This document shows positions 10,451-27,679 of a stretch of 64,000 nt of DNA, piece after piece. Under the pieces are notes generated by a model. That model ran no database searches, had not been told where the DNA came from, and saw nothing but the letters and a program-made list of their open reading frames with translations. Origin of the DNA: Janthinobacterium sp. J1-1 (lineage in GTDB: Bacteria > Pseudomonadota > Gammaproteobacteria > Burkholderiales > Burkholderiaceae_D); the NCBI RefSeq assembly GCF_030944405.1, contig NZ_CP132339.1:3658001-3722000 (forward strand), written 5' to 3'. The position numbers and the translations under genes are program-made. How positions within the stretch are numbered: the stretch's first letter is position 1; each line of letters opens with the position of its first letter.

Positions 10451-12706
10451 ATGGTTTCCACTTCGGCCCCGAATAGCGCCACCACGGAACAACTGGTCGA
10501 GGGCCTGAGTGCGCCGGACAGCGCGCGCGTGCTCGATGCGCTGGCCTATGCGACCGAAGCGTATGGCGACAAGCTGACCTTTGCCGGCCGCCCGGCGCTC
10601 GACTTCGCCATCGGCGTGGCCACCACCCTCGCGTTCCTGCGCAGCGATGCGGAAACCCGGATTGCCGGTCTGATGTTCGAGCTGACCCTGCTCGAACCCG
10701 ATACGGCGGCCGATATCGAACCGCGCTTCGGCAAGCAGGTGTGCGACCTGGCCACCGGCGTGCGCCAGCTGATACGCCTGCGCGCGCTGACCCAGACCTC
10801 GCATGCGGGCGGCGCCGGTGGGCGCGGCAAGAATGCGGCCCAGCAAGCCGTGGCGCAAGTGGAAACCCTGCGCAAGATGCTGCTGGCGATGGCGTCGGAC
10901 ATGCGCGTGGTGCTGGTGCGCCTGGCGTCGTGCGTGACCACCCTGCGTTATTTTGCGGAATTGAAGTTGTTCAATGACATGACGCGCGAATACGGCCGGG
11001 AAACCCTGGACCTGTACGCACCGCTGGCCAACCGGCTCGGCATCTGGCAGCTGAAGTGGGAACTGGAGGATTTGTCGTTCCGCTTCATCGAACCGGACGC
11101 CTACAAGCGCATCGCCAAGATGCTGGAAGAAAAGCGCATGATGCGCGAGGGTTTTGTTTCCTCGGCGATCTTGCGCCTGCAGACGGAACTGGCCTCGGCC
11201 GGCATCCAGGCCGAAGTGTTCGGCCGCCCGAAACATATCTACAGCATCTGGAACAAGATGCGCGGCAAGGAGCTGGACTTCACGGCGCTGTACGATGTGC
11301 GCGCGTTCCGCGTGATCGTCGCTGATGTGAAGACCTGCTACACGGTGCTGGGCGTGGTGCACAATATCTGGACCCCGATCCCGAAGGAATTCGACGACTA
11401 TATCTCGCGCCCGAAACCGAACGGCTACCAGTCGCTGCACACGGTGGTGATGGCCGACGACAGCCGGCCGCTGGAAGTGCAAATCCGCACCAATGAAATG
11501 CACAGCTTTGCCGAATACGGCGTGGCGGCGCACTGGCGCTACAAGGAAGAGGGCGGCTCGAACTTTGCCGGTCAAAAATACGACGAAAAGATCGCCTGGC
11601 TGCGCCAGTTGCTGGCGTGGAAGAGCGATGTGGCCGACGCCGTCGTCGGCCAGGAGGAAATCCAGCGTGAATGGGTGGAAAAGCTCAAGTCCGCCACCCT
11701 GGACGACCGCATCTTCGTCATGACGCCGCAGGCGCGCGTGCTGGAGCTGCCGGTCGGCGCCACCCCGGTCGACTTTGCCTACCACCTGCACAGCGATGTG
11801 GGCCACCGTTGCCGCGGCGCCAAGGTCGACGGCGTGATGGTGCCGCTGAACACCCAGCTGAAAAACGGCCAGACCTGCGAAATCATCACCGCCAAGGGCG
11901 CGCCGGGCACGGCCGGGCCGTCGCGCGACTGGCTCAGCGCTGGCTACGCCGTCAGCACCCGCACGCGCTCGAAAATCCGCGCCTGGTTCCATGCGATCGA
12001 CATGCAGGAAACCCTGGGCCATGGCCGCGCGCTGGTGGAAAAATCCTTGCAGCGCGAAGGCAAGACCGCCGTCAACCTCGAAGCGCTGGCGCACAAGCTG
12101 GGGTTTGGCAAGGTCGATGAACTGTTCCTGTCGGTCGGCAAGGATGAATTCAGCCTGCGCCACGTGGAGCAGGCGCTGCACGACAATGGCGAAGTGGCGG
12201 AACCGGAAGACGCCGTGCTGGTCGGCAAAAGCCGCGCCTCCAGCGTGGAGCAGGGCGCCAAGTCCGGCGTGCTGGTGGTCGGCACGGAAGGCCTGATGAC
12301 GGTGCTGGCCAAATGCTGCAAGCCGGCGCCGCCGGACAGCATCGTCGGTTTTGTCACGCGCGGCAAGGGCGTCTCGATCCACCGCGCCACCTGCAAGAAT
12401 TTCGAGGAAATGCGCGCCAAGGCGCCCGAACGCGTGATTTTCACGGAGTGGGGCAGCACCGGCGGACACGATACGGTGTATCCGGTCGACATCTTCATCC
12501 TCGCCGGCGACCGCCAGGGCCTGCTGCGCGATATCTCCGAGATCTTCTCGCGTGAAAAAATCAACGTCATCGGCGTCAACACGCAAAGCGCCAAGGGCCA
12601 GGCCCGCATGACCTTTACGGCCGAGATCAGCTCGACGGCGCAGTTGCTGAAAGCCTTGAATGTGATCAAGGACGTCAGCGGCGTGCTGGAAGCGCGGCGC
12701 AGCTGA
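10451..12706 (+). CDS. relA: RelA, GTP pyrophosphokinase, (p)ppGpp synthetase
   Basis: The 751-residue protein has the order expected for long RelA/SpoT enzymes. The N-terminal region corresponds to the HD hydrolase but has LMFELTLLEPDTAAD where the HDTVEDT motif should be, so hydrolase activity is probably lost. The synthetase domain contains GRPKHIYSIWNKMRGKELDF and RPKPNGYQSLHTVV. EFDD at residues 313-316 is the acidic EXDD form that marks monofunctional RelA. A TGS domain (FVMTPQARVLELPVGATPVD) and a C-terminal ACT domain (ILAGDRQGLLRDISEIFS) follow. It makes pppGpp/ppGpp on stalled ribosomes. The ATG follows AAGG in the ridA-relA junction. Confidence 0.95.
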   Translation: MVSTSAPNSATTEQLVEGLSAPDSARVLDALAYATEAYGDKLTFAGRPALDFAIGVATTLAFLRSDAETRIAGLMFELTLLEPDTAADIEPRFGKQVCDLATGVRQLIRLRALTQTSHAGGAGGRGKNAAQQAVAQVETLRKMLLAMASDMRVVLVRLASCVTTLRYFAELKLFNDMTREYGRETLDLYAPLANRLGIWQLKWELEDLSFRFIEPDAYKRIAKMLEEKRMMREGFVSSAILRLQTELASAGIQAEVFGRPKHIYSIWNKMRGKELDFTALYDVRAFRVIVADVKTCYTVLGVVHNIWTPIPKEFDDYISRPKPNGYQSLHTVVMADDSRPLEVQIRTNEMHSFAEYGVAAHWRYKEEGGSNFAGQKYDEKIAWLRQLLAWKSDVADAVVGQEEIQREWVEKLKSATLDDRIFVMTPQARVLELPVGATPVDFAYHLHSDVGHRCRGAKVDGVMVPLNTQLKNGQTCEIITAKGAPGTAGPSRDWLSAGYAVSTRTRSKIRAWFHAIDMQETLGHGRALVEKSLQREGKTAVNLEALAHKLGFGKVDELFLSVGKDEFSLRHVEQALHDNGEVAEPEDAVLVGKSRASSVEQGAKSGVLVVGTEGLMTVLAKCCKPAPPDSIVGFVTRGKGVSIHRATCKNFEEMRAKAPERVIFTEWGSTGGHDTVYPVDIFILAGDRQGLLRDISEIFSREKINVIGVNTQSAKGQARMTFTAEISSTAQLLKALNVIKDVSGVLEARRS

Positions 12707-12827
12707 TGCTTGCCTGCAAAGGCCCGGGCCGGCCGCATGGCGACGGGCGCTGACCGCCTTCGCTGTGCCCCGTGGCGCCCCGCCGCGCGGTCTGTTGTCA
12801 TTATTTTCCATCCGGATAAGATGGCAA

Positions 12828-12856
12828 TTGACTTAAGTTCTTGATGGCAATACACT
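12828..12856 (+). promoter_or_regulatory. Predicted sigma-70 promoter of the exoprotein gene
   Basis: TTGACT at 12828-12833, a 17-base spacer and TACACT at 12851-12856 form a good -35/-10 pair. Transcription would start near 12863 and leave an untranslated leader of about 145 bases. TGCAAA and TTTGCA form an inverted repeat at 12856-12875 over the predicted start. The remainder of the 300-base gap 12707-13006 shows no gene and no clear relA terminator. Confidence 0.55.
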
Positions 12857-13006
12857 GCAAATTGAACATTTTGCAATTTATTTTGCCGCGGCATGCAGTT
12901 TCGCCACGTTTATGTTGTCCATTGCGCGATCAGGCATGCGCCAGGTGTTTCTCGCGTACCGCAGATTGCACCCGGAAATACCACCCTCTCCCTATCGTCG
13001 GACATC

Positions 13007-14839
13007 ATGAATCGCATCTACCGCTCCATCTGGAACCAGGCCACCGGCGCCTACGCAGCTGTTTCCGAAAACGTCAAATCGGCCGGCAAGCGCTCGATGC
13101 CCGGCAGCGCCGGCGGCGGCGCGCATTTTGCCCTGACCAGCATGGCGGCGGCGCTGATGCTGGGCTATGGCAGTCTTGCGCTGGCGGGGCCCACCGGTGG
13201 CACGGTGGTGGCGGGCCAGGCGAACATCACCGGCGCGCCCGGTTCGACGGTGATCAAGCAGGGCAGCCAGAACGCGGTCATCAACTGGGCCAACTTCAAT
13301 ATCAACAAGGGCGAGTCGGTGCAGTTCGTGCAGCCGAACAGCAATGCGGTGGCGCTGAACCGCGTGCTGGGCAGTGACGGCACCACCATCCTGGGCAATC
13401 TGTCGGCCAACGGCAAGGTGTTTGTCGTCAATCCGAACGGCATCCTGTTCGGTAAAGAAGCCTCCGTGAATACGGCCGGCCTGGTGGCCTCCACGCTCGA
13501 TATCAATAACGCCGACTTCATGTCGGGTAACTATAAATTTTCCGGCAACGGCACCGGCAAGGTACTGAACCAGGGGTCGATCAGCGCGCCGGGCGGCTAT
13601 GTCGCCTTGCTGGGCGCGAATGTGTCGAACGAAGGCACGATCAACGCCCGCCTCGGTTCGGTGGCGCTGGCGGCGGGCCGCGCCATCACGCTGGATGTGG
13701 CCGGCGACGGCTTGCTGAACGTGGCGGTGGACCAGGGTGCGGTGGGCGCGCTGGTGCAAAATGGCGGCCTGATCCAGGCCGATGGCGGCAGCGTGCTGCT
13801 GACCGCCCAGGCCGCCGGCGACCTGCTGAAAACCGTGGTCAACAATACCGGCGTGATCGAAGCGCACACCATCGATACGCGCAGCGGCACCATCAAGCTG
13901 CTGGGCGACATGCAGACCGGCACCGTCAACGCCGGCGGCATCCTGGACGCCAGCGCGCCGACCGGCGGCAATGGCGGCTTTGTCGACACCTCGGCCGCGC
14001 ACGTGAAAATGGGCGATGGCTTGAACGTCACGACCACCGCACCGCATGGCCTGACGGGGACCTGGCTGATCGATCCGACCGATTTCACGGTGGCGGCCAC
14101 CGGCGGTGACAAGACCGGCGCGTTCTATACCGATCAGCTGAAAAACACCAGCATCGAGATCCAGACGGTGGCCACTGGCACGGGCCAGGGCAATATCAAT
14201 ATCAACGACACGATTTCCTGGTCGGCCAACAAGCTGACCCTGACGGCGCACAACGATATCAATATCAATGCACCGCTGCACGGTTCGGGCACGGCCAGCC
14301 TGGCGCTGCAGTATGGCCAGGCCAACGCCGTATCCGGCAACACGAGCAAATACAACGTCAAGGCCGAGATCGACCTGCCGGCGGGACAAAATTTCAGCGC
14401 CAAGCTGGGCAGCGATGGCGTGCTGACCAGTTACACGGTGATCAACAGCCTGGGCGCGGCCGGCAGCATCAGCGGTACCGATTTGCAGGGCCTGACAGGT
14501 GCGCTGAATGGCAACTTCGTGCTGGGCGCCAATATCGATGCCAGCGGCACGTCGAACACGTCGGTCTGGGGCGCCAACGGTTTCACGCCAATCGGCACCA
14601 GCGGCGTGCAATTCAGCGGCCAGTTCGACGGTCTGGGCCATGTCATTACCGGCCTGGCCAGCGGCACCACCACCGGCAACAGCACGGTCGGCCTGTTCGG
14701 TGTCACCAGCACCGCAGCAAGCGTGCGCAATATCGGGATGGTCGGGGTCGCGATCACGGGCAATGCGCCGAACGGTACCTACGGTACGGTGGCGGGCTGG
14801 TCGGCATCAATAACGGCAGCATCGATAATGCGTATGTGA
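13007..14839 (+). CDS. TpsA-type exoprotein, N-terminal part with ESPR signal and TPS haemagglutination domain
   Basis: The ATG at 13007 opens an extended signal peptide region (MNRIYRSIWNQATGAYAAVS) followed by a hydrophobic core ending near LALAGPTGG (about residue 64). Then comes the TPS/haemagglutination-activity domain, with GSQNAVINWANFNINKGESV, LNRVLGSDGTTILGNLSANG and the hallmark VNPNGILFG. This domain directs two-partner secretion through an outer-membrane TpsB protein; none is encoded in the window. Later residues hold the first GLUG motif. The frame is lost near 14789-14798, where one G or C appears missing in GTGGCGGGCTGG (expected V-G-G-L-V-G). After that point 13-14 residues are out of register before the TGA ending at 14839. 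Confidence 0.88.
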   Translation: MNRIYRSIWNQATGAYAAVSENVKSAGKRSMPGSAGGGAHFALTSMAAALMLGYGSLALAGPTGGTVVAGQANITGAPGSTVIKQGSQNAVINWANFNINKGESVQFVQPNSNAVALNRVLGSDGTTILGNLSANGKVFVVNPNGILFGKEASVNTAGLVASTLDINNADFMSGNYKFSGNGTGKVLNQGSISAPGGYVALLGANVSNEGTINARLGSVALAAGRAITLDVAGDGLLNVAVDQGAVGALVQNGGLIQADGGSVLLTAQAAGDLLKTVVNNTGVIEAHTIDTRSGTIKLLGDMQTGTVNAGGILDASAPTGGNGGFVDTSAAHVKMGDGLNVTTTAPHGLTGTWLIDPTDFTVAATGGDKTGAFYTDQLKNTSIEIQTVATGTGQGNININDTISWSANKLTLTAHNDININAPLHGSGTASLALQYGQANAVSGNTSKYNVKAEIDLPAGQNFSAKLGSDGVLTSYTVINSLGAAGSISGTDLQGLTGALNGNFVLGANIDASGTSNTSVWGANGFTPIGTSGVQFSGQFDGLGHVITGLASGTTTGNSTVGLFGVTSTAASVRNIGMVGVAITGNAPNGTYGTVAGWSASITAASIMRM

Positions 14840-17367
14840 CCGGTTCGCTCAGCAGCCCGGCCAACGTGGTAATGGGCGGCCTGGTCGGGAAAAACGGCGG
14901 CATCATCAGCAACAGCTACAACAGCGCGACGGTGACCGCGCCGGGCACGAGCGCCTTTATCGGTGGACTGGTCAGCCAAAACTTCGCTAACAGCAAGATC
15001 ATCAGCAGCTATAACAGCGGCGCGGTGACCTCGACTCTCAATAGTGCCGGCGGCCTGGCCAACTACAACCTGGGCAGCATCACCGACAGTTTTAACCTCG
15101 GCGCGGTGACCGCCAAAATCGGCGCCGGCGGCATTACCGCCAACAACCGCAGCAAGGCCACCATCAGCAACAGCTACAGCACCGGCGCCATCACGGCCAA
15201 CGGGCAAGCCGGCGGCCTGGTCGGCTACAACTTTTCGACGGCGCAGATCAACAACAGCTACGCCACCGGAACCGTGACCAATCCCGGCATCGCCGTCTCA
15301 GGCGGCATCGCCACCGGTGGGCTGGTCGGCGACAACCGTGGAGCCATTGCCAACAGTTATGCCACCGGCGCGGTGAACGGCAACCTTGCGGTGGGCGGCG
15401 TGGTGGGCACGATGTCCATGGCGGGCACGTTGACGAATGTCTATTCGTCCGGCGCCGTGGCCTTGGTCAACGGCGGCATGGGTACGGTGGGCGGCGTGGT
15501 CGGCACCATGAGCGGAACCAGTTCGGTCAACAGCGGGTATTTCAATGCGACGCTGAACCCGGCGCAGATGACGGGCGTCGGCTTGAACAACAGCAGCAAC
15601 AGCCAACCCATCACCTCGGTCATCGGCCTGAGCTCGGCGCAAATGCAAGTGGCCTCGAATTTCGCCAACTTCGCTTTCACGACCGACACTGGCGTGGCGG
15701 GCAACAACTGGGTGATGGTCAATACCGACGGTACGCTCAATGGCGCAGGCAACGCGACCGGCGCCACCGGGTCGATGCTGGCGTCCGAATACAGCACCGA
15801 TATCCGCTCGTCGCACCAGTTGCAACTGATGGCGATGAATCTGGCCGGCAACTACACGCTGAAGCAGGATATCAACGCCGCCAGCACCGGCACCACTGGC
15901 GATGTGTGGAATGGCGCCACCTTTGTTCCGCTCGGCGCCAGCACGGCGACGCCGTTCACCGGCACCCTGAACGGTGCCGGTCATGTCATTTCCGGCCTGG
16001 TGATCAACCGTCCCGGCACGAATGTCGCCGGCCTGTTCGGCGCCACATCGGGCACCGCGATTGTGCGCGATATCGGCCTCGAAGGCGGCAGCATCACCGG
16101 CAAGGATGCCACCGGCGCCCTGGTCGGCAGCAACCTGGGTCTCGTCAGCGGCAGCTACAGCACCGCCAGCGTGACAGGCGGCAGCCAGGTCGGCGGCCTG
16201 GTCGGCTTGAACGGCATCGAAGGTGGCACGCCTGGCATCGTCACCAACAGCTACGCCAGCGGCGCCGTCACCGGCACCGGCGTCATCGGCGGCCTGGTCG
16301 GCGAGAATAGCGGCACGCTGACCAACAACTATGCCAGCGGCACCGTCACCGGCGGCAGCTCGGCGGGCGGCCTGGCCGGCAGCAATAGCAGCACCGCCAC
16401 CGTCACTGGCAATTTCTGGGATAGCACGACCAGCGGCCAGTTGAACAGCGCGACCGGCGCCGGCTTGAGCACCGCGCAAATGAAATTGCTGTCCACCTAT
16501 AGCGGCGCGGCATGGGACCTGGCCGGCGCGTGGATCGTCTATGACAGCTATACCTACCCCTTGCTGCGCGCCTTCATGACGCCGTTGCAGGTGACGTTTG
16601 CCGCCAACGCCAGCAAGACCTATGACGGTACCAATGTCTGGACGGCGCCGGGCGTCAGCAGTTCGAACGCCTACGGCTATGCGGCGCTGCAGGGCACACT
16701 GAACTATGGCGCGGCGGGCAATGCCGTCAACGCCGGCACCTATGCCATCACGGCCAGCGGCCTGTATTCGGGCCAGCGCGGGTATGCGATCACTGCGAAC
16801 AGCACGACCTTGACCATCGACAAGCGGGCCTTGACCTTGACCGGCCTGGCCGGGGTCAGCAAGCAATACGATGGCTTGACCTCGGTCACGTTGACGGGCG
16901 GTACCTTGCTCGGTCTGGTCGGCAGCGAAGTGGTGACCGTCGGCGCGTCGAGCGGCAGCTACGCCAATGCGAACGCCGGCAGCGGCAAGGCGATCACGGT
17001 GGTGCCAGGCACGCTGGGCGACGGCAATGGCCTGGCCAGCAATTATTCGCTCGCCGCGCCGACCGGCGTCACGGGCGCGATCACGACCAAGCTCCTGACC
17101 TGGAGCGGCTTGACCGCGGCCAATAAAGTCTATGACGGCACCAAAGCGGCCACCATCACCGGCGGCTCCTTGAACGGCATGGTCGGCAGCGAAACGGTGA
17201 CCTGGGTCCCCAGCGGCCTGTTTTCCGACAGCAACGCCGCCAATGGCAAGACCGTCACTGTCAGCACCGTCCTGGGCGACGGCAGCAATGGCGGCCTGGC
17301 GGCCTGGCGGCCAACTACAGGATCTCCAATACGGTCGCGCCGGCCAACGTCACGAAAAAAGTGTTGA
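14836..17367 (+). CDS. Exoprotein fragment 2: GLUG motifs and first YDG repeats
   Basis: This segment continues the exoprotein in the next frame; genuine coding sequence begins near 14795 (GLVGINNGSIDNAYVTG), upstream of the ATG. It holds many GLUG-type motifs of the pattern GGLVG.N.G.I.NSY..G.V (to about 16400), a WDSTTSGQ segment, an MBG-like domain (FAANASKTYDGTNVWTAPGV) and the first two YDG repeats (KQYDGLTSVTLTGG and KVYDGTKAATITGG). The register is lost at 17298-17305, after which it reads WRPTTGSPIRS to the stop. The segment is unlikely to be translated on its own because there is no ribosome-binding site. Confidence 0.8.
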   Translation: MTGSLSSPANVVMGGLVGKNGGIISNSYNSATVTAPGTSAFIGGLVSQNFANSKIISSYNSGAVTSTLNSAGGLANYNLGSITDSFNLGAVTAKIGAGGITANNRSKATISNSYSTGAITANGQAGGLVGYNFSTAQINNSYATGTVTNPGIAVSGGIATGGLVGDNRGAIANSYATGAVNGNLAVGGVVGTMSMAGTLTNVYSSGAVALVNGGMGTVGGVVGTMSGTSSVNSGYFNATLNPAQMTGVGLNNSSNSQPITSVIGLSSAQMQVASNFANFAFTTDTGVAGNNWVMVNTDGTLNGAGNATGATGSMLASEYSTDIRSSHQLQLMAMNLAGNYTLKQDINAASTGTTGDVWNGATFVPLGASTATPFTGTLNGAGHVISGLVINRPGTNVAGLFGATSGTAIVRDIGLEGGSITGKDATGALVGSNLGLVSGSYSTASVTGGSQVGGLVGLNGIEGGTPGIVTNSYASGAVTGTGVIGGLVGENSGTLTNNYASGTVTGGSSAGGLAGSNSSTATVTGNFWDSTTSGQLNSATGAGLSTAQMKLLSTYSGAAWDLAGAWIVYDSYTYPLLRAFMTPLQVTFAANASKTYDGTNVWTAPGVSSSNAYGYAALQGTLNYGAAGNAVNAGTYAITASGLYSGQRGYAITANSTTLTIDKRALTLTGLAGVSKQYDGLTSVTLTGGTLLGLVGSEVVTVGASSGSYANANAGSGKAITVVPGTLGDGNGLASNYSLAAPTGVTGAITTKLLTWSGLTAANKVYDGTKAATITGGSLNGMVGSETVTWVPSGLFSDSNAANGKTVTVSTVLGDGSNGGLAAWRPTTGSPIRSRRPTSRKKC
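17290..17313 (+). repeat. Tandem 8-bp repeat (GGCGGCCT) causing a frameshift
   Basis: Two GGCGGCCT units are followed by GGCGGCCA. Removing one 8-base unit gives in-frame GGC GGC CTG GCG GCC AAC TAC (G-G-L-A-A-N-Y), which matches the conserved end of every neighbouring repeat (G-G-L-A-S-N-Y). Two units join frames 14836 and 17361 only if one is lost. Confidence 0.85.
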
Positions 17368-20042
17368 CGCTGACCGGCGAGACAGCCAACAACAAAGTCT
17401 ACGACGGTTTGACGGCGGCCACGTTTACCGGCGGCACCCTGAGCGGCTTCGTCGGGTCGGAAACGGTCATCCTGGACAGCTTGGCCGGCAGCTTCGGCGA
17501 CAAGAACGCCGGCAACGGCAAGCCCGTGACGATCACCGGCGGCACCTTGAGCAACGGCAACGGCGGCGGCCTGTTCGTCAATTATTCGGTCGGCAGCGTC
17601 ACGGGCCTGTCCGCCAATATCGCGCAAAAAGCGCTGACGGTCAGCGGCGTCACGGTCGGCAGCAAGGCGTATGACGGCAACACGTCGGCGACGGTGACGG
17701 GCGGCACCTTGAGCGGCATGGTCAGCGGTGAAACGCTGGGCCTGTCCGGCCAGACGGGCGAGTTCAGCGACAAGAACGCGGCCAATGGCAAGACCGTGAC
17801 GGTAAGCGGCGCCACCCTGGTCAACGGCAGCGGCCTGGCCAGCAACTACACGGTCAGCAACGCCACCGGCGCGACCGGCAATATCACGCAAAAAGCGCTG
17901 ACGATCGACGGCGTGACGGCCGCCGACAAGGTTTACGATGGCAACACTGCGGCCACCTTGAGCGGCGGCGCTTTGACCGGCATGGCCGGTTCGGAAACGC
18001 TGGGCCTGTCGAGTCTGAGCGGTGTTTTCGGCGACCAGAACGCGGGCGCAAGCAAGGCCGTGACGGTGACCGGCGGCGCCTTGAGCGACGGCGGCAACGG
18101 CGGCCTGGCCAGCAACTATACGGTCGGCGCGGTGACCGGCGTGACGGCCAGCATCACGCAAAAAGCGCTGACGTTGAGCGGCCTGAGCGCCAGCGCCAAG
18201 GCGTATGACGGCAATGCCAATGCGACGCTCTCCGGCGGCACCCTGAGCGGCATGGTCGGCGGTGAAACGGTGACCGTGTCCGGCCAGAGCGGCGCGTTCA
18301 GCGACAAGAACGCCGCCACCGGCAAGACCGTGACGGTGTCCGGCGTGACGCTGGCCGACGGCAGCGGCCTGGCCAGCAATTATTCGGTGACCGCGCCGAC
18401 CGGCTTGACGGCCGACATCACGAAAAAAGCGCTGACGATCAGTGGCATCACGGCCGCCAACCGGGCCTACACCGGCACTACCACGGTCACCCTGGGCGGT
18501 ACCGTGATTCTCGACGGCCTGGTCGGTGCGGAAGGCGTCGGCGTCGGCGGCATGGTCGGTGTCTTTGCCGACAAGAACGTCGGCACCGGCAAGGCCGTCA
18601 CCATCACCGGCGCGGTCATGACCGTCGGCAGCAACGGCGGCCAGGCCAGCAACTACACGATCAGCAATCCGACCGGCGTGACGGCCAATATCAACAAGGC
18701 CACCATCACCTCGGTCACCAACATCGTGACCAACAGCAAGGTCTACGACGGCGGCTTGAACGCCACCGTCAATGCGGCTGGCGCCACGTTCAACGGCATC
18801 AAACTCAGCGACAGCCTGACGCTGAGCGCGACGACGTCCACGTTCGCCAACAAGAACGTCGGCAATGGCAAGACGGTGTCGATCAGCGGCATCACGCTGG
18901 GCGGCACCGACGCCGGCAACTACAACCTGGCCAGCAGCACCAGCAGCAGCACCGGCAATATCACGCCGAAAGCGCTGACAGTATCGGGCCTGACGGCCGG
19001 CACGCGCGCCTACGACGGCACGGCGACGGCGACCTTGAGCGGCGGCACCTTGAACGGCGTGATCAGCGGCGAAACGCTGGTGATCAACGGCGGCAGCGCT
19101 CTGTTCGCCGACAAGAACGTCGGCGCGGCCAAGACCGTCACGGTGTCCGGCGTCGGCCTGCTGGATGGCACGGGCCTGGCCAGCAATTACTCGGTGACCA
19201 ATCCGACCGGCGTCACCGGCGACATCACGCCCAAAGCGCTGACGGTGTCGGGCATGACGGCTGGCAGCAAGGTATATGACGGCTTGCTGGCGGCGACTCT
19301 TGCCGGCGGCAGTTTGAACGGCCTGGTCAGCGGTGAAACACTGGTCTTGTCCGGCGGCAGCGGCGTGTTCGGCGACAGGAACGCCGGCGCGGCCAAGGCC
19401 GTCACCATCAGCGGCGTCGGCTTGCTGGATGGCACTGGCCTGGCAAGCAACTACTCGGTGACCAGTCCGACCGGCGTGACCGGCACGATCACGCAAAAAG
19501 CGCTGACGCTATCGGGTACGCTGTCGGCCAGCGACAAGGTCTATGACGGCTTGACTGCGGCCGCCATTTCCGGCGGCGCCGTCAGCGGCTTCGTCGGCAC
19601 CGAAACGGTCAGCCTGTCCGGCTTGTCCGGCGCGTTTGCCGACAAGAATGCCGGCAACGCCAAGGCCGTGACGGTTTCCGGCGCCACCTTGGCCGACGGC
19701 AGCAACGGCGGCCTGGCCAGCAACTATTCGGTCGGCGCCAGCGCCAGCCTGACAGCCAGCATCACGCAAAAAGCGCTGACGATCACCGGCGCGACGGCGG
19801 CCAACCGGCTCTATGACGGCACGCTCAATGCGAGCATCAGCGGCGGCGCCTTGAACGGCCTGGTCGGTTCGGAAACGGTCGGCCTGGCCACCTTGTCCGG
19901 CGCGTTCGTCGACAAGAACGTCGGCACCGCCAAGGCGGTCACCGTCAGCGGCGCGGGCTTGACGGATGGCGGCAATGGCGGCCTGGCGGCCTGGCGGCCA
20001 ACTACACGGTCGCCATGCCGAGCGGCCTGGTCGCCAACGTGA
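17361..20042 (+). CDS. Exoprotein fragment 3: ten YDG repeats
   Basis: Real coding sequence in this frame starts just after the 8-bp duplication (about 17306, NYRISNTVAPANVTKKVLTL). It encodes ten consecutive YDG repeats of about 87-90 residues. Each has K.YDG, a TL.GGTL.G.V..ET segment, FADKNAG..KAVTV and LASNYSV..PTG...I..KALT. One unit has YTG instead of YDG (near 18470), and one is of the variant VNAAGATFNGI type (near 18720-18960). The register is lost again at 19985-19992. Such repeats are found in bacterial surface adhesins and filamentous haemagglutinin-like exoproteins. Confidence 0.82.
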   Translation: MLTLTGETANNKVYDGLTAATFTGGTLSGFVGSETVILDSLAGSFGDKNAGNGKPVTITGGTLSNGNGGGLFVNYSVGSVTGLSANIAQKALTVSGVTVGSKAYDGNTSATVTGGTLSGMVSGETLGLSGQTGEFSDKNAANGKTVTVSGATLVNGSGLASNYTVSNATGATGNITQKALTIDGVTAADKVYDGNTAATLSGGALTGMAGSETLGLSSLSGVFGDQNAGASKAVTVTGGALSDGGNGGLASNYTVGAVTGVTASITQKALTLSGLSASAKAYDGNANATLSGGTLSGMVGGETVTVSGQSGAFSDKNAATGKTVTVSGVTLADGSGLASNYSVTAPTGLTADITKKALTISGITAANRAYTGTTTVTLGGTVILDGLVGAEGVGVGGMVGVFADKNVGTGKAVTITGAVMTVGSNGGQASNYTISNPTGVTANINKATITSVTNIVTNSKVYDGGLNATVNAAGATFNGIKLSDSLTLSATTSTFANKNVGNGKTVSISGITLGGTDAGNYNLASSTSSSTGNITPKALTVSGLTAGTRAYDGTATATLSGGTLNGVISGETLVINGGSALFADKNVGAAKTVTVSGVGLLDGTGLASNYSVTNPTGVTGDITPKALTVSGMTAGSKVYDGLLAATLAGGSLNGLVSGETLVLSGGSGVFGDRNAGAAKAVTISGVGLLDGTGLASNYSVTSPTGVTGTITQKALTLSGTLSASDKVYDGLTAAAISGGAVSGFVGTETVSLSGLSGAFADKNAGNAKAVTVSGATLADGSNGGLASNYSVGASASLTASITQKALTITGATAANRLYDGTLNASISGGALNGLVGSETVGLATLSGAFVDKNVGTAKAVTVSGAGLTDGGNGGLAAWRPTTRSPCRAAWSPT
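19977..20000 (+). repeat. Second identical tandem 8-bp repeat causing a frameshift
   Basis: The same 24 bases as at 17290-17313 recur here, 2,687 bases away. Again loss of one 8-base unit restores G-G-L-A-A-N-Y and joins the upstream and downstream reading frames. Confidence 0.85.
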
Positions 20043-23000
20043 CGAAGGCGACCATCGGCAGCTTGAGCAATATCACGACGGTCGACAAAGTATACGATGC
20101 CAGCACCAAAGCGACCGTCAGCGGCGCGACGTTCAACGGCATGGTCAGCGGCGACAGCCTGTCGCTGAGCGGCAGCGCCGTGTTCGCCGACAAGAACGTC
20201 GGCACGGCCAAGGCGGCCACCATCAGCGCCCTGACGCTGGGCGGCCTGGATGCCGCCAACTACAACCTGACACCGACGACCGGCAGCGGCACCGGCAATA
20301 TCACGCCGAAAGCGATCACCGTGATTAACATGACGGCGCTCAACAAGGTCTACGATGGCAATACCAAGGCGACCTTGTCGGGCGGTTCGCTGAGCGGCCT
20401 GGTCGGCTCGGAAACCCTGGGTTTGAGCGGCTTGACAGCCAGTTTCGCCGACAAGAACGCCGGCAACACCAAGACAGTGACGGCGAGCGGTTCGGTGCTC
20501 GTCAACGGCAGCAACGGCGGCCTGGCCAGCAATTATTCGGTCACCGACCCAACCGGCTTGACGGCCAATATCACCCAAAAAGCGTTGACGGTGACGGGCA
20601 TGACGGCCGGCACCCGGGTGTATGACGGCACGACGGCGGCGACGTTGTCCGGCGGCGCCTTGTCCGGTCTGGTCAGCGGTGAAACGCTGGTGCTCAACGG
20701 CGGCAGCGGTGTGTTCGGCGACAAGAACGCTGGCGCGGCCAAGGCCGTCACGGTCAGTGGCGTCAGCCTGGGCAATGGCACCGGCCTGGCCGGCAATTAC
20801 ACGGTCGCCAATCCGACCGGCGTGACCGGCACGATCACGCAAAAAACGTTGACGGTCAGCGGTGCGACGGCGGGCAACAAGGATTACGACGGCAGCACCA
20901 AGGCCATGTTGTCGGGCGGCACGCTCGATGGCTTGATCGTCGGCGAAACCTTGACACTGGCCGGCGCGTTCGCCGACAAGAATGTCGCGTCCGACAAGTT
21001 GGTCACGGTCAGTGTCAACAACGGCAGCGGTCTGGCCGGCAACTACGCGCTCAGCAACCCGACCGGTCTGACAGCGACCATCACACCCAAAGCCGTCAGC
21101 GTCAGCGGCGCGACGGCGGGCAACAAGGTCTATGATGGCAGCATGACGGCCACGTTGTCGGGCGGCACGCTCGATGGCTTGATCGTTGGCGAAACCTTGA
21201 CGCTGGCCGGCGCGTTCGTCGACAAGAATGCCGCGTCCAGCAAAGCGGTGACGGTCAGTGTCGGCGACGGCAGCGGCCTGGCCGGCAACTACGCGCTCAG
21301 CAACCCGACCGGTCTGACAGCGACCATCGCGCCCAAAGCGTTGAGCGTGACCGGCATCACGGCCGGCAACAAAATCTACGATGGCAAGACGACTGCCAGC
21401 GTGAACACCCTTGGTGCGACGTTCGACGGCATGGTGGCCGACGACAAGCTGACAGCTTCCGCCAATGGCGTGTTTGCCGACAAGAATGCAGCGACGGATA
21501 AAACCGTCACCATCAGCGGCATCGCGCTGGGCGGTGCGGATGCGGGCAATTACAAGCTCGCCAGCACTAGCGCCACCAGCAAGGCCGATATTACGGTCAA
21601 GGCCCTGACGCTGAGCGGTTTGACGGCGGACAGTAAAACCTATGACGGCACCAAAACGGCAGCCGTCAACACCGCCGGCGCCAGGTTCGACGGCATCGTC
21701 AGCGGCGATGCACTGACGGTCGGCGCGAGCGCCGAATTCAGCGACAAGAACGCCGCGACGGGCAAAACCGTCACCCTCAGCGGCATCGCGCTGGGTGGCG
21801 CGGATGCCGGCAATTACAAGCTTGACAGCGCCAGCACCAGCGCCACCACCAAGGCCGATATTACGGCCAGGGGCCTGGCGCTGAGCGGTTTGACGGCCGA
21901 CAGCAAAACCTATGACGGCAGCAAAACGGCAGTGGTCAACACCGCTGGCGCCAGGTTCGACGGCATCGTCAGCGGCGATGCACTGACGGCCGGCGCGAGC
22001 GCCGAGTTCAGCGACAAGAACGCTGCCAGCGGCAAAACCGTCACCCTCAGCGGCATCGCGCTGGGCGGCGCGGATGCCGGCAATTACAAGCTCGACAGCG
22101 CCAGCAGCAGCGCCACCACCAAGGCCGATATAACGGCCAAGACGCTGACGCTGAGCGGTTTGACGGCCGACAGCAAAACCTATGACGGCACCAAAACGGC
22201 AGCCGTCAATACGGCTGGCGCCAGGTTCGACGGCATCGTCAGCGGCGATGCACTGACGGCCGGCGCGAACGCCGATTTCAGCGACAAGAACGCCGCGACG
22301 GGCAAAACCGTCACCATCAGCGGCATCGCGCTGGGTGGCGCGGATGCCGGCAATTACAAGCTCGACAGCGCCAGCAGCAGCGCCACCACCAAGGCCGATA
22401 TAACGGCCAAGACGCTGACGCTGAGCGGTTTGACGGCCGACAGCAAAACCTATGACGGCATCAAAACGGCAGCCGTAAATACAGCTGGTGCCAAGTTCGA
22501 CGGCATCGTCAGCGGCGATACACTGACGGCTGGCGCCAGCGCCGAGTTCAGCGACAAGAACGCTGCCAGCGGCAAAACCGTCACCATCAGCGGTATCGCG
22601 CTGGGCGGCGCGGATGCCGGCAATTACAAGCTCGACAGCACCAGCGCCACCACCAGGGCCGATATTACGGCCAGGGGCCTGGCGCTGAGCGGTTTGACGG
22701 CCGACAGCAAAACCTATGACGGCACCAAAACGGCAGCCGTCAATACGGCTGGCGCCAGGTTCGACGGCATCGTCAGCGGCGATGCACTGACGGCTGGCGC
22801 GAGCGCCGAATTCAGCGACAAGAACGCGGCGACGGGTAAAACTGTCACCATCAGCGGCATCGCGCTGGGCGGCGCGGATGCCGGCAATTACAAGCTCGAC
22901 AGCACCAGCGCCACCACCAGGGCCGATATTACGGCCAAGGTCCTGACGCTGAGCGGTTTGACGGCGGACAGCAAAACCTATGACGGCACCAAAGCGGCAG

Positions 23001-26000
23001 TGGTCAACACCGTTGGCGCCAGGTTCGACGGCATCGTCAGCGGCGATGTACTGACGGCCGGCGCGAGCGCCGAGTTCAGCGACAAGAACGCTGCCAGCGG
23101 CAAAACCGTCACCCTCAGCGGCATCGCGCTGGGTGGTACGGATGCAGGTAATTACAAGCTCGACAGCACCAGCGCCACCACCAAGGCCAATATTACAGCC
23201 AGGGTCCTGACGCTGAGCGGTTTGACGGCCGACAGCAAAACCTATGACGGCACCAAAGCGGCAGTGGTTAACACCGCTGGCGCCAAGTTCGACGGCATCG
23301 TCAGCGGCGACGCACTGACGGCCGGCGCGAGCGCCGAGTTCAGCGACAAGAACGCCGCCAGCGGCAAAACCGTCACCCTCAGCGGCATCGCGCTGGGCGG
23401 CGCGGATGCCGGCAATTACAAGCTTGACAGCGCCAGCAGCAGCGCCACCACCAAGGCCGATATTACGGCCAGGGGCCTGACGCTGAGCGGTTTGACGGCC
23501 GACAGCAAAACCTATGACGGCAGCAAAACGGCAGTGGTCAACACCGCTGGCGCCAGGTTCGACGGCATCGTCAGCGGCGATGCACTGACGGCCGGCGCGA
23601 GCGCCGAGTTCAGCGACAAGAACGCCGCGACGGGCAAAACCGTCACCATCAGCGGTATCGCGCTGGGCGGCGCGGATGCCGGCAATTACAAGCTCGACAG
23701 CACCAGCGCCAGCGCCACGGCTGATATCACGGCCAAGGCCCTGACGATCAATGGTCAGGTTGCCGGTAACAAGGTCTACGACGGCAACACGCAAGCGACG
23801 CTGTCGGGCGGAACTTTGAGCGGCCTGATCGGCTCGGAAACGCTGGGCATCGCCGGTCAAAGCGCGACGTTCAATGACAAGAACGCCGCCAGCCGCAAAA
23901 CTGTGACGGTGACCGGCACGACGCTGGTCGATGGCACGGGCTCGGCCAGCAATTATTCGGTGGACAACCCGACCGGCCTGAGCGCGTCGATCACGCAAAA
24001 AGCGCTGACGGTCACCGGCCAGCTGGCTGGCAACAAGGTCTACGATGGCAATGTGCAAGCGACGCTGTCGGGTGGCGCGTTGACGGGCCTGGTTGGCTCT
24101 GAAACGCTGGTCATTGGCGGTCAGACCGCAGTGTTCGGCGACCAGAACGCCGCCAACGGCAAGACGGTCACGGTGACGGGCACGACACTGGGCGATACAG
24201 CCAATGGCCTCGCCAGCAATTATTCTGTCAGCAATCCGACCGGATTGACGGCGTCGATCACGCAAAAAGCGTTGACGGTGACTAGTCAACTGGCCGGCAA
24301 CAAGGTCTACGACGGTAATGCGGCAGCAACATTGTCGGGCGGCACATTGAATGGCCTCATCGGCTTGGAAACGCTGGGCATCGCCGGTCAGACGGCAGTG
24401 TTCAGCGACAAGAACGCGGCCAATGGCAAGACCGTGACGGTCACCGGCACGACCCTGGTCGATACCTCCACGGGCCTGGCATCGAACTACTCGGTCAGCA
24501 ACCCGACCGGCTTGACGGCCAGCATTACGGCCAAGGCCTTGACGGTGACCGGCCAACTGGCGGGCAATAAAGTCTATGACGGCAATACCGCGGCGCAATT
24601 GTCCGGTGGCACCCTGAGTGGCCTGGTCGCTGGCGAGACCCTGGTGATCGGTGGCCAGAACGCGACGTTTGCCGACAAGAATGCCGGCACCGCCAAGGCC
24701 GTGACGGTGACGGGCACGACCCTGGTCGATACCGCCAACGGCCTGGCCAGCAACTATACGGTCAGCAACCCGACCGGCCTGACGGCCAGCATCACGGCCA
24801 AGGCCCTGACGGTGACCGGTCAACTGGCGGGCAATAAAGTCTATGACGGCAATGCGCAAGCCAGCCTGTCCGGCGGCGCATTGAGCGGCCTGGTGGCGGG
24901 CGAAACGCTGGGCTTTGGTGGTCAAAACGCCGTGTTCAGCGACAAGAACGCGGCCAATGGCAAGACGGTGACGGTCACCGGCACCACCCTGGTCGATACC
25001 GCCACCGGCCTGGCCAGCAACTATACGGTCAGCAACCCGACCGGCTTGACGGCCAGCATCACGGCCAAGGCTTTGATGGTCACGGGCCAACTGGCGGGCA
25101 ATAAAGTCTATGACGGCAATGCGCAAGCCAGCCTGTCCGGCGGCGCCTTGAGCGGGCTGGTGGCCGGTGAAACGCTGGGCTTTGGCGGCCAGAACGCCGT
25201 CTTCAGCGACAAGAACGCGGCCAATGGCAAGACCGTGACGGTGACTGGCACCACCCTGCTCGATACCGCCAACGGCCTGGCCAGCAACTATACGGTCAGC
25301 AACCCGACCGGCCTGACGGCCAGCATTACGGCCAAGGCCCTGACGGTGACGGGCCAGCTGGCCGGCAACAAGGTCTATGACGGCACGGCGCAAGCCAGCC
25401 TGTCTGGCGGCGCCTTGAGCGGCCTGGTCGCTGGTGAAACCCTGGTGATCGGTGGCCAGAACGCAACGTTTGCCGACAAGAACGCCGGCACGGCCAAGGC
25501 CGTCACGGTGACGGGCACGACCCTGGTCGACACTAGCACCGGCCTGGCCCGCAACTATACGGTCAGCAATCCGACCGGCCTGACGGCCAGCATCACGCCG
25601 AAAGCCCTGACGGTGGCCGGTCAATTGGCCACCAACAAGGTGTATGACGGCACCACGGCGGCGCCATTGTCCGGCGGCGTGCTGGCGGGCCTGGTGGCGG
25701 GCGAAAGCCTGGGCCTGGCGGGTCAGACGGCGAAGTTTGCCGACAAGAACGCGGCCACCGCCAAGGCGGTGACGGTGACCGGCACGACGCTGGTCGATAC
25801 CAGCACCGGCCTGGCCAGCAACTATACGATCAGCAATCCGACCGGCTTGACGGCCAGCATCACGCCGGCCAGCCTGCTGGTGCGCGCCACGGGAGCCGCG
25901 TCGCGCGTGTATGACACCACCACCAACGCCAGCGTGACCCTGGGCGACAACCGTATCGCCGGCGACGTGCTGACCATCAGCAACAGCGGCGCCAGCTTTG

Positions 26001-26662
26001 CCGACAAGAACGCCGGCACCAACAAGACGGTGACGGTGAACGGCATTGCGCTCGGCGGCGCGGATGCGGGCAACTATATTGTCAACACGACGGCGACCAC
26101 CACGGCCAGCATCACGCAGGCGGCGCTGGGTGTCAAAGTGGACAATGCCGAGAAAGACCAGGGCCGCGCCAACCCGGCCTTCACGGCCAGCTACACGGGC
26201 TTGCTGGGCGGCGACACACTGGCGAACGAAGTCAGCGGCAACCTGGCGTTCACCACGCCGGCGACCACCGGCTCGCCATCGGGCAGCTATGTGGTGTCGG
26301 CGGCCGGCCAGGCATCGACCAACTATGCGCTGACCTACACGCCGGGCGTGCTGACGGTCAATCCGACCGAAGCGCTGCAAAGCGCGGTGGCCAGCGTGAT
26401 CGCGGCGGTCAATGTGGCGCCATCGCAAGGCAATATGGTGCAGGCCGAGGTGGTGGCGAAAGGGGAAACCGTCACCAGCAAGGAGGACGCGGTGCAGGTG
26501 GCGGTGGAGGGCAGCCAGCCGCAGCAGCAGGGCAGCGCGCCGGTGGTGCAGACGACGGCCTCGGTGAACAGCAATGTGTTGCCGGGCTTGCGCCTGAATG
26601 TGATCGATACGGGCCTGCGGCTGCCGGTGGGCACAGGCAACAGCAGCGTCGAAAGCGAGTAA
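20015..26662 (+). CDS. Exoprotein fragment 4: about 23 YDG repeats and C-terminal MBG-like domain
   Basis: This is the longest open segment, about 2,215 residues, entirely made of YDG repeats until about 26120. Repeats at 20040-21600 are divergent. Those at 21611-23746 are eight nearly identical LTADSKTYDG units, and those at 23750-25870 are eight QLAGNKVYDG-type units. One last variant unit (RVYDTTTNASVTLGDN) is followed by an MBG-type domain (VDNAEKDQGRANPAFTASYT, ALTYTPGVLTVNPTE). The C-terminal 100 residues are glutamine- and valine-rich and end in LRLPVGTGNSSVESE. No autotransporter barrel or anchor is present, which fits release by two-partner secretion. Confidence 0.85.
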   Translation: MPSGLVANVTKATIGSLSNITTVDKVYDASTKATVSGATFNGMVSGDSLSLSGSAVFADKNVGTAKAATISALTLGGLDAANYNLTPTTGSGTGNITPKAITVINMTALNKVYDGNTKATLSGGSLSGLVGSETLGLSGLTASFADKNAGNTKTVTASGSVLVNGSNGGLASNYSVTDPTGLTANITQKALTVTGMTAGTRVYDGTTAATLSGGALSGLVSGETLVLNGGSGVFGDKNAGAAKAVTVSGVSLGNGTGLAGNYTVANPTGVTGTITQKTLTVSGATAGNKDYDGSTKAMLSGGTLDGLIVGETLTLAGAFADKNVASDKLVTVSVNNGSGLAGNYALSNPTGLTATITPKAVSVSGATAGNKVYDGSMTATLSGGTLDGLIVGETLTLAGAFVDKNAASSKAVTVSVGDGSGLAGNYALSNPTGLTATIAPKALSVTGITAGNKIYDGKTTASVNTLGATFDGMVADDKLTASANGVFADKNAATDKTVTISGIALGGADAGNYKLASTSATSKADITVKALTLSGLTADSKTYDGTKTAAVNTAGARFDGIVSGDALTVGASAEFSDKNAATGKTVTLSGIALGGADAGNYKLDSASTSATTKADITARGLALSGLTADSKTYDGSKTAVVNTAGARFDGIVSGDALTAGASAEFSDKNAASGKTVTLSGIALGGADAGNYKLDSASSSATTKADITAKTLTLSGLTADSKTYDGTKTAAVNTAGARFDGIVSGDALTAGANADFSDKNAATGKTVTISGIALGGADAGNYKLDSASSSATTKADITAKTLTLSGLTADSKTYDGIKTAAVNTAGAKFDGIVSGDTLTAGASAEFSDKNAASGKTVTISGIALGGADAGNYKLDSTSATTRADITARGLALSGLTADSKTYDGTKTAAVNTAGARFDGIVSGDALTAGASAEFSDKNAATGKTVTISGIALGGADAGNYKLDSTSATTRADITAKVLTLSGLTADSKTYDGTKAAVVNTVGARFDGIVSGDVLTAGASAEFSDKNAASGKTVTLSGIALGGTDAGNYKLDSTSATTKANITARVLTLSGLTADSKTYDGTKAAVVNTAGAKFDGIVSGDALTAGASAEFSDKNAASGKTVTLSGIALGGADAGNYKLDSASSSATTKADITARGLTLSGLTADSKTYDGSKTAVVNTAGARFDGIVSGDALTAGASAEFSDKNAATGKTVTISGIALGGADAGNYKLDSTSASATADITAKALTINGQVAGNKVYDGNTQATLSGGTLSGLIGSETLGIAGQSATFNDKNAASRKTVTVTGTTLVDGTGSASNYSVDNPTGLSASITQKALTVTGQLAGNKVYDGNVQATLSGGALTGLVGSETLVIGGQTAVFGDQNAANGKTVTVTGTTLGDTANGLASNYSVSNPTGLTASITQKALTVTSQLAGNKVYDGNAAATLSGGTLNGLIGLETLGIAGQTAVFSDKNAANGKTVTVTGTTLVDTSTGLASNYSVSNPTGLTASITAKALTVTGQLAGNKVYDGNTAAQLSGGTLSGLVAGETLVIGGQNATFADKNAGTAKAVTVTGTTLVDTANGLASNYTVSNPTGLTASITAKALTVTGQLAGNKVYDGNAQASLSGGALSGLVAGETLGFGGQNAVFSDKNAANGKTVTVTGTTLVDTATGLASNYTVSNPTGLTASITAKALMVTGQLAGNKVYDGNAQASLSGGALSGLVAGETLGFGGQNAVFSDKNAANGKTVTVTGTTLLDTANGLASNYTVSNPTGLTASITAKALTVTGQLAGNKVYDGTAQASLSGGALSGLVAGETLVIGGQNATFADKNAGTAKAVTVTGTTLVDTSTGLARNYTVSNPTGLTASITPKALTVAGQLATNKVYDGTTAAPLSGGVLAGLVAGESLGLAGQTAKFADKNAATAKAVTVTGTTLVDTSTGLASNYTISNPTGLTASITPASLLVRATGAASRVYDTTTNASVTLGDNRIAGDVLTISNSGASFADKNAGTNKTVTVNGIALGGADAGNYIVNTTATTTASITQAALGVKVDNAEKDQGRANPAFTASYTGLLGGDTLANEVSGNLAFTTPATTGSPSGSYVVSAAGQASTNYALTYTPGVLTVNPTEALQSAVASVIAAVNVAPSQGNMVQAEVVAKGETVTSKEDAVQVAVEGSQPQQQGSAPVVQTTASVNSNVLPGLRLNVIDTGLRLPVGTGNSSVESE
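21611..23746 (+). repeat. Eight near-identical YDG units of 264 or 270 bp
   Basis: Units start at 21611, 21881, 22151, 22421, 22685, 22949, 23213 and 23483. Lengths are 270, 270, 270, 264, 264, 264, 270 and 264 bases. The 6-base difference is the presence or absence of two residues in the TSASTSATT/STSATT linker. Differences between units are scattered single bases, often shared by non-adjacent units, which suggests recombination or gene conversion. Confidence 0.9.
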
Positions 26663-26725
26663 CAAGGCCGGTCAACACCGTCGCGCGGCAGGGCAGGCGT
26701 CCCAGGGCTGGCCGGGCTGCCTGCT

Positions 26726-27679
26726 TCAGGCGATCCGGTCGTGACTGTGGTCTTGCTGGTGCAGGCCCGCCATGCCGGCGGTTTCCGCCTGCAAGGTGAT
26801 ATGGTCGATGCCATGCTGGCTCAGCAGCATGGCCTTGATGGCGCGCAGCACCTGCGGCCAGTCTTGCAGTTCATTGATCTGCACGTGGCCGATCAGCGCC
26901 GGCTGGCCCGGCGACATGTCCCACACGTGCAGGTCGTGGACCGACAGCACGCCGGGAATCTGCTCGACGTCGGCGCCCACCCGCAGGTAGTCGATCTGGT
27001 GCGGCACGCCTTCCATCAGGAAGTGGTACGAGTCCTTCAACACCCCAAACGTCGATTTCAAAATCAGCAAGGAGACCAGCACCGACAGCAGCGGGTCGAT
27101 CCGCATCCAGCCAGTGAAGTAGATCACGGCGCCGGCGACGATGGCGGCCACCGAACCCAGCAAGTCGCCCATCACGTGGACCAGTGCGGCGCGCGTGTTG
27201 ACGCTGTCCTTGTCTTTCGACAGCACCCACGCCACCACCACATTGATCGCCAGGCCGATGACGGCCACTACCACCACCGTGTCGCCATGCACGGCTTCGG
27301 GGGTGGAAAAGCGCAGCACGGCTTCGTAGCAGATCCAGCCCACCACGCACAGCATGGCCAGGCCGTTGACAAAGGCGGCCAGCGCTTCGGCGCGGCCAAA
27401 GCCGAACGAGTGGCGCGGCGAAGGCGGGCGGCGGGCGATCACCTGCGCCAGCAGCGCCAGGCCCAGCGCAGCCGCATCGGTGACCATATGGCCGGCGTCG
27501 GAAATCAGGGCCAGCGAGTTGGACAGGAAACCGAACGCCACTTCGACGCCGGCAAACGATAATGTCAGGCCCAGCGCCCACGCCAGCACGCTTTGCTTGC
27601 GCCCCGTGAACGAGTGAGTGTGCTTGGCGTCGCCTTTCAGGTGGGCGTGCAGATGGGTGTGGTCGGTGGTGTCATGCAT
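26726..27679 (-). CDS. Cation diffusion facilitator (zinc/cobalt/cadmium exporter)
   Basis: This protein of about 317 residues is a CDF-family metal/proton antiporter of the inner membrane. It has a His-rich cytoplasmic N-terminus (MHDTTDHTHLHAHLKGDAKH), six predicted membrane segments and the two HxxxD metal-binding motifs (SDAGHMVTDAAAL in TM2 and HVMGDLLGS in TM5). The C-terminal cytoplasmic domain contains VHDLHVWDMSPGQPALIGHV. The likely substrate is Zn(II), with Co(II) or Cd(II) possible; ZitB/CzcD are the closest named types. The ATG at 27679 is chosen because the frame upstream runs into the terminator region and has no family sequence. Confidence 0.9.
   Translation of the reverse strand: MHDTTDHTHLHAHLKGDAKHTHSFTGRKQSVLAWALGLTLSFAGVEVAFGFLSNSLALISDAGHMVTDAAALGLALLAQVIARRPPSPRHSFGFGRAEALAAFVNGLAMLCVVGWICYEAVLRFSTPEAVHGDTVVVVAVIGLAINVVVAWVLSKDKDSVNTRAALVHVMGDLLGSVAAIVAGAVIYFTGWMRIDPLLSVLVSLLILKSTFGVLKDSYHFLMEGVPHQIDYLRVGADVEQIPGVLSVHDLHVWDMSPGQPALIGHVQINELQDWPQVLRAIKAMLLSQHGIDHITLQAETAGMAGLHQQDHSHDRIA

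What the first reader, a model, noticed from the sequence alone, without database searches (positions are those of the whole stretch)
17290..20000. Two identical 8-bp tandem repeats break and could switch a giant exoprotein gene
At 17290-17313 and 19977-20000 the same 24 bases (GGCGGCCT twice, then GGCGGCCA) interrupt the reading frame. Deleting one 8-base unit at each site restores the conserved end of a YDG repeat. No in-frame copy of this repeat variant is visible elsewhere in the gene, where the equivalent stretch is GGCCTGGCCAGC. Tandem octamers are classic slipped-strand sites, so the locus may phase-vary. Two extra units plus one lost base sum to +15, returning to the original frame. 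The alternative is a recurrent assembly error at a GC-rich repeat.
Basis: partly seen in the sequence, partly recalled or inferred. Interest (0 to 1): 0.75.

Follow-up and report, generated by a model that had tools for sequence, protein, structure and literature searches.

The report
Broken duplicate adhesin-like gene, shared frameshifts
A very large surface-protein gene in a Janthinobacterium-like bacterium is thrown out of frame by the same 8-base stutter at two places, and because other sequence records show the same breaks it looks like an inherited dead copy rather than an on/off switch or a sequencing mistake.

Summary
Two identical perfect arrays of three TGGCGGCC units (17289-17312, 19976-19999) break the frame of a ~13.7 kb exoprotein gene; a third, unrelated frame change lies near 14.8 kb. 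Among 40 genus genomes (this one included) the three-unit array occurs only here. Two-unit versions sit in frame at seven YDG sites in five genes, two sites in an intact paralog in the same genome. Assembly error is unlikely: the out-of-frame tail of site 1 recurs in three non-identical database proteins and that of site 2 in one. No near-identical unbroken allele appeared among 120 listed long relatives. The gene lies beside a relA/spoT-type gene; neither of the genome's two ShlB transporter genes is in the window, and one adjoins the intact paralog. Best reading: an orphan duplicate exoprotein gene, inactivated by two octamer duplications plus a third lesion, the broken state being shared by more than one lineage. 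An on/off switch is not supported: three lesions, three units per array, no unit-number variation seen.

The parts
12893..14839 (+). First open piece of the broken exoprotein gene; the likely true start is MNRIY at 13007. ESPR signal peptide and TPS secretion domain
14780..14836 (.). Third frame change, not at an octamer; stretch given only approximately
14836..17367 (+). Second open piece: GLUG motif and the first YDG domains; ends 18 codons after array 1
17289..17312 (+). Array 1: TGGCGGCC x3
17361..20042 (+). Third open piece: 10 YDG stretches; ends 14 codons after array 2
19976..19999 (+). Array 2: TGGCGGCC x3
20015..26662 (+). Fourth open piece: 23 YDG stretches and a C-terminal MBG_2 domain
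10451..12706 (+). RelA/SpoT-type gene directly upstream; marks the orphan location

Best explanation
The locus is an orphan duplicate of a two-partner-secretion (TpsA-type) YDG-repeat exoprotein gene that has become a pseudogene. Where a YDG unit ends in the codons for NGGLAANY, one codon choice already contains two 8-base units. Replication slippage (or a very short exchange between repeats) added a third unit at two such places; each extra unit shifts the frame and translation then stops 14-18 codons past the array. A third, unrelated frame change nearer the start also breaks the gene. The broken state is shared by more than one lineage. Shown here: arrays, frames, genus-wide distribution, recurrence of the out-of-frame tails in other records, orphan position, intact paralog beside a transporter gene. 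Inferred: slippage as the mutational step, loss of function, relaxed selection on this copy.
For: Arrays and frames. Three-unit array in 1 of 40 genus genomes, only at these two sites; two-unit form in frame at 7 YDG sites in five genes. Site 2 tail in P0004, 886 of 892 residues identical; site 1 tail in P0124, P0125 and P0126; in no other of 364 proteins held. No long relative closer than 83.8, 66.8, 72.3 and 68.3% to the four pieces. Orphan setting: two ShlB genes in the genome, one directly upstream of the intact paralog, none in the window; relA-linked copy otherwise seen only in G009, empty site in G023 and G003.
Against: There is no nonsense codon in about 4,500 codons apart from the three frame changes; this fits a recent loss (0.5 expected at 0.2% divergence, 1.2 at 0.5%) but also a gene still under some constraint. 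The sharing rests on a handful of cluster representatives read as proteins, not DNA; P0125 and P0126 are mosaic, and P0124 has a stretch identical to the paralog, so chimeric assembly is possible for these. Expression is unknown.
Confidence: 0.8

Rival explanations
1. Phase variation: unit number at the two arrays changes reversibly and switches the exoprotein on and off.
For: Perfect tandem octamers inside a surface-protein frame; a change of one unit shifts the frame. Precedents seen as passages: an intragenic heptamer array with a frameshift in hmw1a, a TPS adhesin gene (PMC2651432), and the short TTTA array of icaC, with 4 to 6 units in variant isolates (PMC4117637).
Against: Two arrays plus a third lesion would all have to change. 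Only three units each; for a 1-6 copy octamer the H. influenzae authors remark that limited variation and short length are not what a classical locus would show (PMC2651432, passage cut off). The same state in all readable near-identical alleles. The known hmw arrays have 12 or more units.
Confidence: 0.1
2. Recurrent sequencing or assembly error at a GC-rich repeat (87.5% G+C).
For: Both breaks have the identical sequence; the three-unit form is found in this genome only among 40.
Against: The same tails occur in other records that differ from the window in residues. Two-unit sites in the paralog of the same assembly are in frame, and so are those in four other genomes. A 24-base array is short enough for one read to span.
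Confidence: 0.04
3. Recoding: ribosomes slip by -1 on A AAA AAG at 17355-17361, just before the stop of the second piece, and rejoin the third piece.
For: The heptamer is in register and followed by one sense codon and the stop; -1 slippage leads into the frame of the third piece. That this heptamer type supports -1 frameshifting (as in dnaX) is recalled, not searched.
Against: Only two AAAAAAG occur in the gene, at 17355 and 18423, so none follows array 2. RNA downstream folds no better than shuffles (z -0.18). The A-run comes from ordinary Lys-Lys codons of the repeat.
Confidence: 0.02

Closest known systems
TpsA exoproteins of two-partner secretion (FHA/HMW1-like) with YDG and GLUG repeats
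   Same: ESPR and TPS domains, GLUG motif, 35 YDG stretches, MBG_2 domain; 82% N-terminal identity to an intact paralog in the same genome
   Different: Split into four open pieces; no ShlB transporter gene in the window
Phase-variable hmw1A/hmw2A adhesin genes of Haemophilus influenzae (PMC2651432, passages seen)
   Same: Short tandem repeats of 7-9 bases at a TPS adhesin gene; one case inside the reading frame with a frameshift
   Different: Those arrays have 12 or more units and vary between strains; here three units, no variation seen, two arrays and a further lesion
icaC slipped-strand switch of Staphylococcus aureus (PMC4117637, passages seen)
   Same: A short repeat array inside a gene shifts the frame
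   Different: icaC is reversible in culture and varied in 9 of 103 genomes; nothing of the kind could be shown here
Ordinary frameshifted pseudogene of a duplicated gene
   Same: Several frame lesions, shared with other alleles, intact paralog elsewhere in the genome
   Different: Two of the three lesions are the identical octamer expansion in different repeat units

Membership tests
TpsA exoprotein (two-partner secretion) | ESPR / TPS secretion domain at the N-terminus | tested here: met
   PF05860 129.1 bits and PF13018 56.2 bits, both over the curated cut-off
TpsA exoprotein (two-partner secretion) | TpsB (ShlB-type) partner gene alongside | tested here: not met
   Two ShlB matches in the genome, at 2.796 and 5.744 Mb, none in the window at 3.658-3.722 Mb. 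TpsA genes without an adjacent partner are known (recalled), so this counts against an own transport unit, not against the family
Simple-sequence-repeat phase-variable gene | Unit change shifts the frame | tested here: met
   Frames 1, 0 and 2 on the two sides of the arrays
Simple-sequence-repeat phase-variable gene | Unit number varies between alleles of the gene | tested here: inconclusive
   Three units implied in all readable near-identical alleles: P0004 at site 2; P0124, P0125, P0126 at site 1. Few alleles, protein level only
Simple-sequence-repeat phase-variable gene | One change is enough to turn the gene on or off | tested here: not met
   Two arrays and a third frame change
Simple-sequence-repeat phase-variable gene | Reversible within a culture | not testable with these tools
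   No reads or colonies available
Pseudogene | Reading frame interrupted relative to related intact genes | tested here: met
   Three frame changes; the paralog is open over 4,742 codons
Pseudogene | Lesions shared with other alleles | tested here: met
   Tails of sites 1 and 2 in P0124/P0125/P0126 and P0004
Pseudogene | No functional product | not testable with these tools
   No expression or protein data

The most novel reading that the evidence does not exclude
The orphan copy is a locked-off reservoir that exchanges repeat tracts with the intact, transporter-linked paralog (its last 3.46 kb is 88% identical to the paralog, with exact runs up to 275 bases, against 72% over 13006-20905), and one codon choice at the NGGLAANY ends of YDG repeats makes paired octamers a built-in hot spot for repeated frame loss in these giant genes.
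Probability: 0.07. Interest if true: 0.5.

Novelty: new member of a known kind. Interest (0 to 1): 0.22.

Why it matters
It shows the same frame-breaking octamer expansion arising (or being copied) twice in one giant repeat gene, seeded by the codons of the repeat itself, and shows that finding the same odd break in other records is a quick way to tell real lesions from assembly errors. For work on Janthinobacterium exoproteins it suggests that the relA-linked copy is probably dead and that the transporter-linked paralog is the copy to study.

Tried and rejected
Long gene conversion between the two break sites: the repeat units around them are 66.7% identical, which ranks third and second among all units of the gene; identity is complete only over a short block around the array. 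A long tract is rejected, a very short one is not.

Codon context as sole cause: both arrays follow AAT, giving perfect 8-base units, but 4 of the 7 in-frame two-unit YDG sites also follow AAT without expansion.

Recoding at break 1: no supporting structure and no counterpart at break 2.

An unbroken allele: the intact paralog served as query; 122 proteins passed, 120 were listed, and only the 1278 candidates sharing most words were scored, so an allele outside these could have been missed. The two earlier protein searches listed the best 120 of 1791 and of 3095.

Ortholog in G009 (by the shared contig length of 3,492,051 bases, Janthinobacterium sp. PC23-8): its contig ends inside the gene before the break sites, so it does not help.

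Literature: three searches. Janthinobacterium with filamentous hemagglutinin gave 2 papers, seen as listing and abstract starts only. PMC2651432 and PMC4117637 were seen as passages. I make no claim that this locus is unpublished.

One search was translated out of the gene's frame and not used. The script failed; one search gave only the loci in plus orientation; one search gave all 27.

Full report
What is there. The window lies in a 6.95 Mb genome in two contigs. At 13007-26662 on the plus strand lies a two-partner-secretion exoprotein gene: ESPR signal peptide, TPS domain, GLUG motif, 35 matched YDG stretches and a C-terminal MBG_2 domain. It is split into four open pieces.

The observation. 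The 24-mer occurs exactly twice, at the stated coordinates. As an array it is three perfect units of TGGCGGCC. Perfect 3x8 arrays were absent from 400 kb of control sequence of the same chromosome, against 9 arrays of at least 16 bases. The open frame changes at each array and once more near 14.8 kb, running 2, 1, 0, 2, with no stop in the open frame of any segment. Reader and sequence agree, including the return to the first frame.

What relatives show. The three-unit array occurs in 1 of 40 genus genomes, this one, and only at these two places. The two-unit 17-mer occurs at 27 places in 19 of 40 genomes: 2 are inside the window arrays; 7 are in-frame NGGLAANY ends of YDG repeats in five genes (own paralog 2, G033 2, G005, G012 and G024 1 each); 18 lie in a different, conserved gene context, SGGLAAKDIRR. 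Of the aligned relatives that cross the sites, 12 of 12 at site 1 and 14 of 15 at site 2 differ from the window by a length that is not a multiple of three, most often exactly 8 bases shorter; 8 and 5 of 20 loci did not reach across, and the one exception has an extra 1-base gap further on. The window gene therefore departs from an in-frame family norm.

Not a one-off error. A search with piece three found P0004, 886 of 892 residues identical, with the same out-of-frame tail after site 2 and a start shortly after site 1. A search with piece two found P0124 (98.8% identical), P0125 (84.3%) and P0126 (75.1%), all ending in the same tail after site 1; P0124 and P0125 start at the same codon after the third frame change as the window's own piece. 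Among the 364 proteins then held, the tail occurs only in these four and in the window's own two pieces. The clusters stand for 6, 7, 1 and 2 member sequences, and some of the members may be the window's own; only representatives could be read, so I do not claim that all members share the tail. P0125 and P0126 are mosaic, and residues 321-360 of P0124 are identical to the paralog of this genome, so chimeric assembly is possible for these. P0004, with scattered differences, is the cleanest independent witness, directly for site 2 and by its start position for site 1.

No working allele seen. With the intact paralog as query, 120 long relatives were listed. The best identities of held proteins to the four window pieces, the records above aside, were 83.8, 66.8, 72.3 and 68.3%, so no near-identical unbroken allele was seen in these capped lists.

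Setting. Two ShlB (TpsB) genes were found in the genome. One lies directly upstream of the intact paralog at 5.744 Mb, the other beside another exoprotein match at 2.796 Mb. The window copy has none and sits just downstream of a RelA/SpoT-type gene. In the listed (capped) hits of 40 genomes, the exoprotein start lies next to relA only here and in G009, whose contig ends inside the gene; the other end of the G009 locus is on another contig. In G023 and G003 the relA end and the downstream flank lie about 130 and 100 bases apart, an empty site; in G011 and G031 they are 3.2 and 8.4 kb apart with unidentified sequence between. The window copy is thus an orphan at a lineage-restricted place. Its last 3.46 kb is 87.9% identical to the paralog against 71.9% over 13006-20905, with exact runs up to 275 bases, a sign of past exchange or of stronger conservation of the end.

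How it most likely works. Two neighbouring octamers are inherent in one codon choice for NGGLAAN. Slippage added a unit at two such places, after which translation stops 18 and 14 codons past the arrays. With the third lesion the full product cannot be made, and one switch could not reopen the gene. Shown: arrays, frames, distribution, recurrence, orphan setting. Inferred: slippage, loss of function, relaxed selection. The absence of nonsense codons fits a recent loss: 747 of 40,680 possible single substitutions would make a stop, so about 0.5, 1.2 and 2.5 stops are expected at 0.2, 0.5 and 1% divergence. It does not prove decay.

Known comparisons. Repeats of 7-9 bases at TPS adhesin genes are proposed to mediate phase variation in H. 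influenzae, including an intragenic heptamer array with a frameshift in hmw1a; those arrays have 12 or more units (PMC2651432, passages). Short arrays can switch, as the TTTA array of icaC shows (PMC4117637, passages). The present locus shares the kind of sequence but fails one tested feature, a single site whose change is enough, and leaves another, unit variation between alleles, unseen in the few alleles read.

Verdict. A real, shared, twice-repeated octamer expansion in a duplicate gene that is probably dead. It is a modest curiosity; the switch is unlikely but testable with reads.

Noticed in passing
window 14780-14836: A third frame change, not at an octamer, separates the secretion-domain piece from the rest of the gene.
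   Followed up: partly
window 17355-17361: An in-register A AAA AAG heptamer lies one sense codon before the stop that follows array 1; -1 slippage there would lead into the next piece, but array 2 has no counterpart.
   Followed up: yes
window 23199-26662: The 3' end is 88% identical to the paralog, with exact runs up to 275 bases, against 72% over 13006-20905: possible exchange between the copies.
   Followed up: partly
window 12706-26760: The gene fills a site that is empty in G023 and G003 (relA about 100-130 bases from the downstream flank); G011 and G031 carry 3.2 and 8.4 kb of unidentified sequence there.
   Followed up: partly
proteins P0124, P0125, P0126: Stretches of these alleles match the paralog better than the window copy, or neither, while the last part up to the site 1 tail is identical: allele mosaicism or metagenome chimerism.
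   Followed up: partly
L003, L117-L119, L121-L124, L126-L136: The same two-unit 16-mer sits in an unrelated conserved gene (SGGLAAKDIRR context) at 18 places in the genus, none of them expanded to three units.
   Followed up: no
window 20015-26662: Pfam matches to DUF4431, N-glycanase_C and MBDa have no stretch that passes on its own and are probably repeat-composition artefacts.
   Followed up: no
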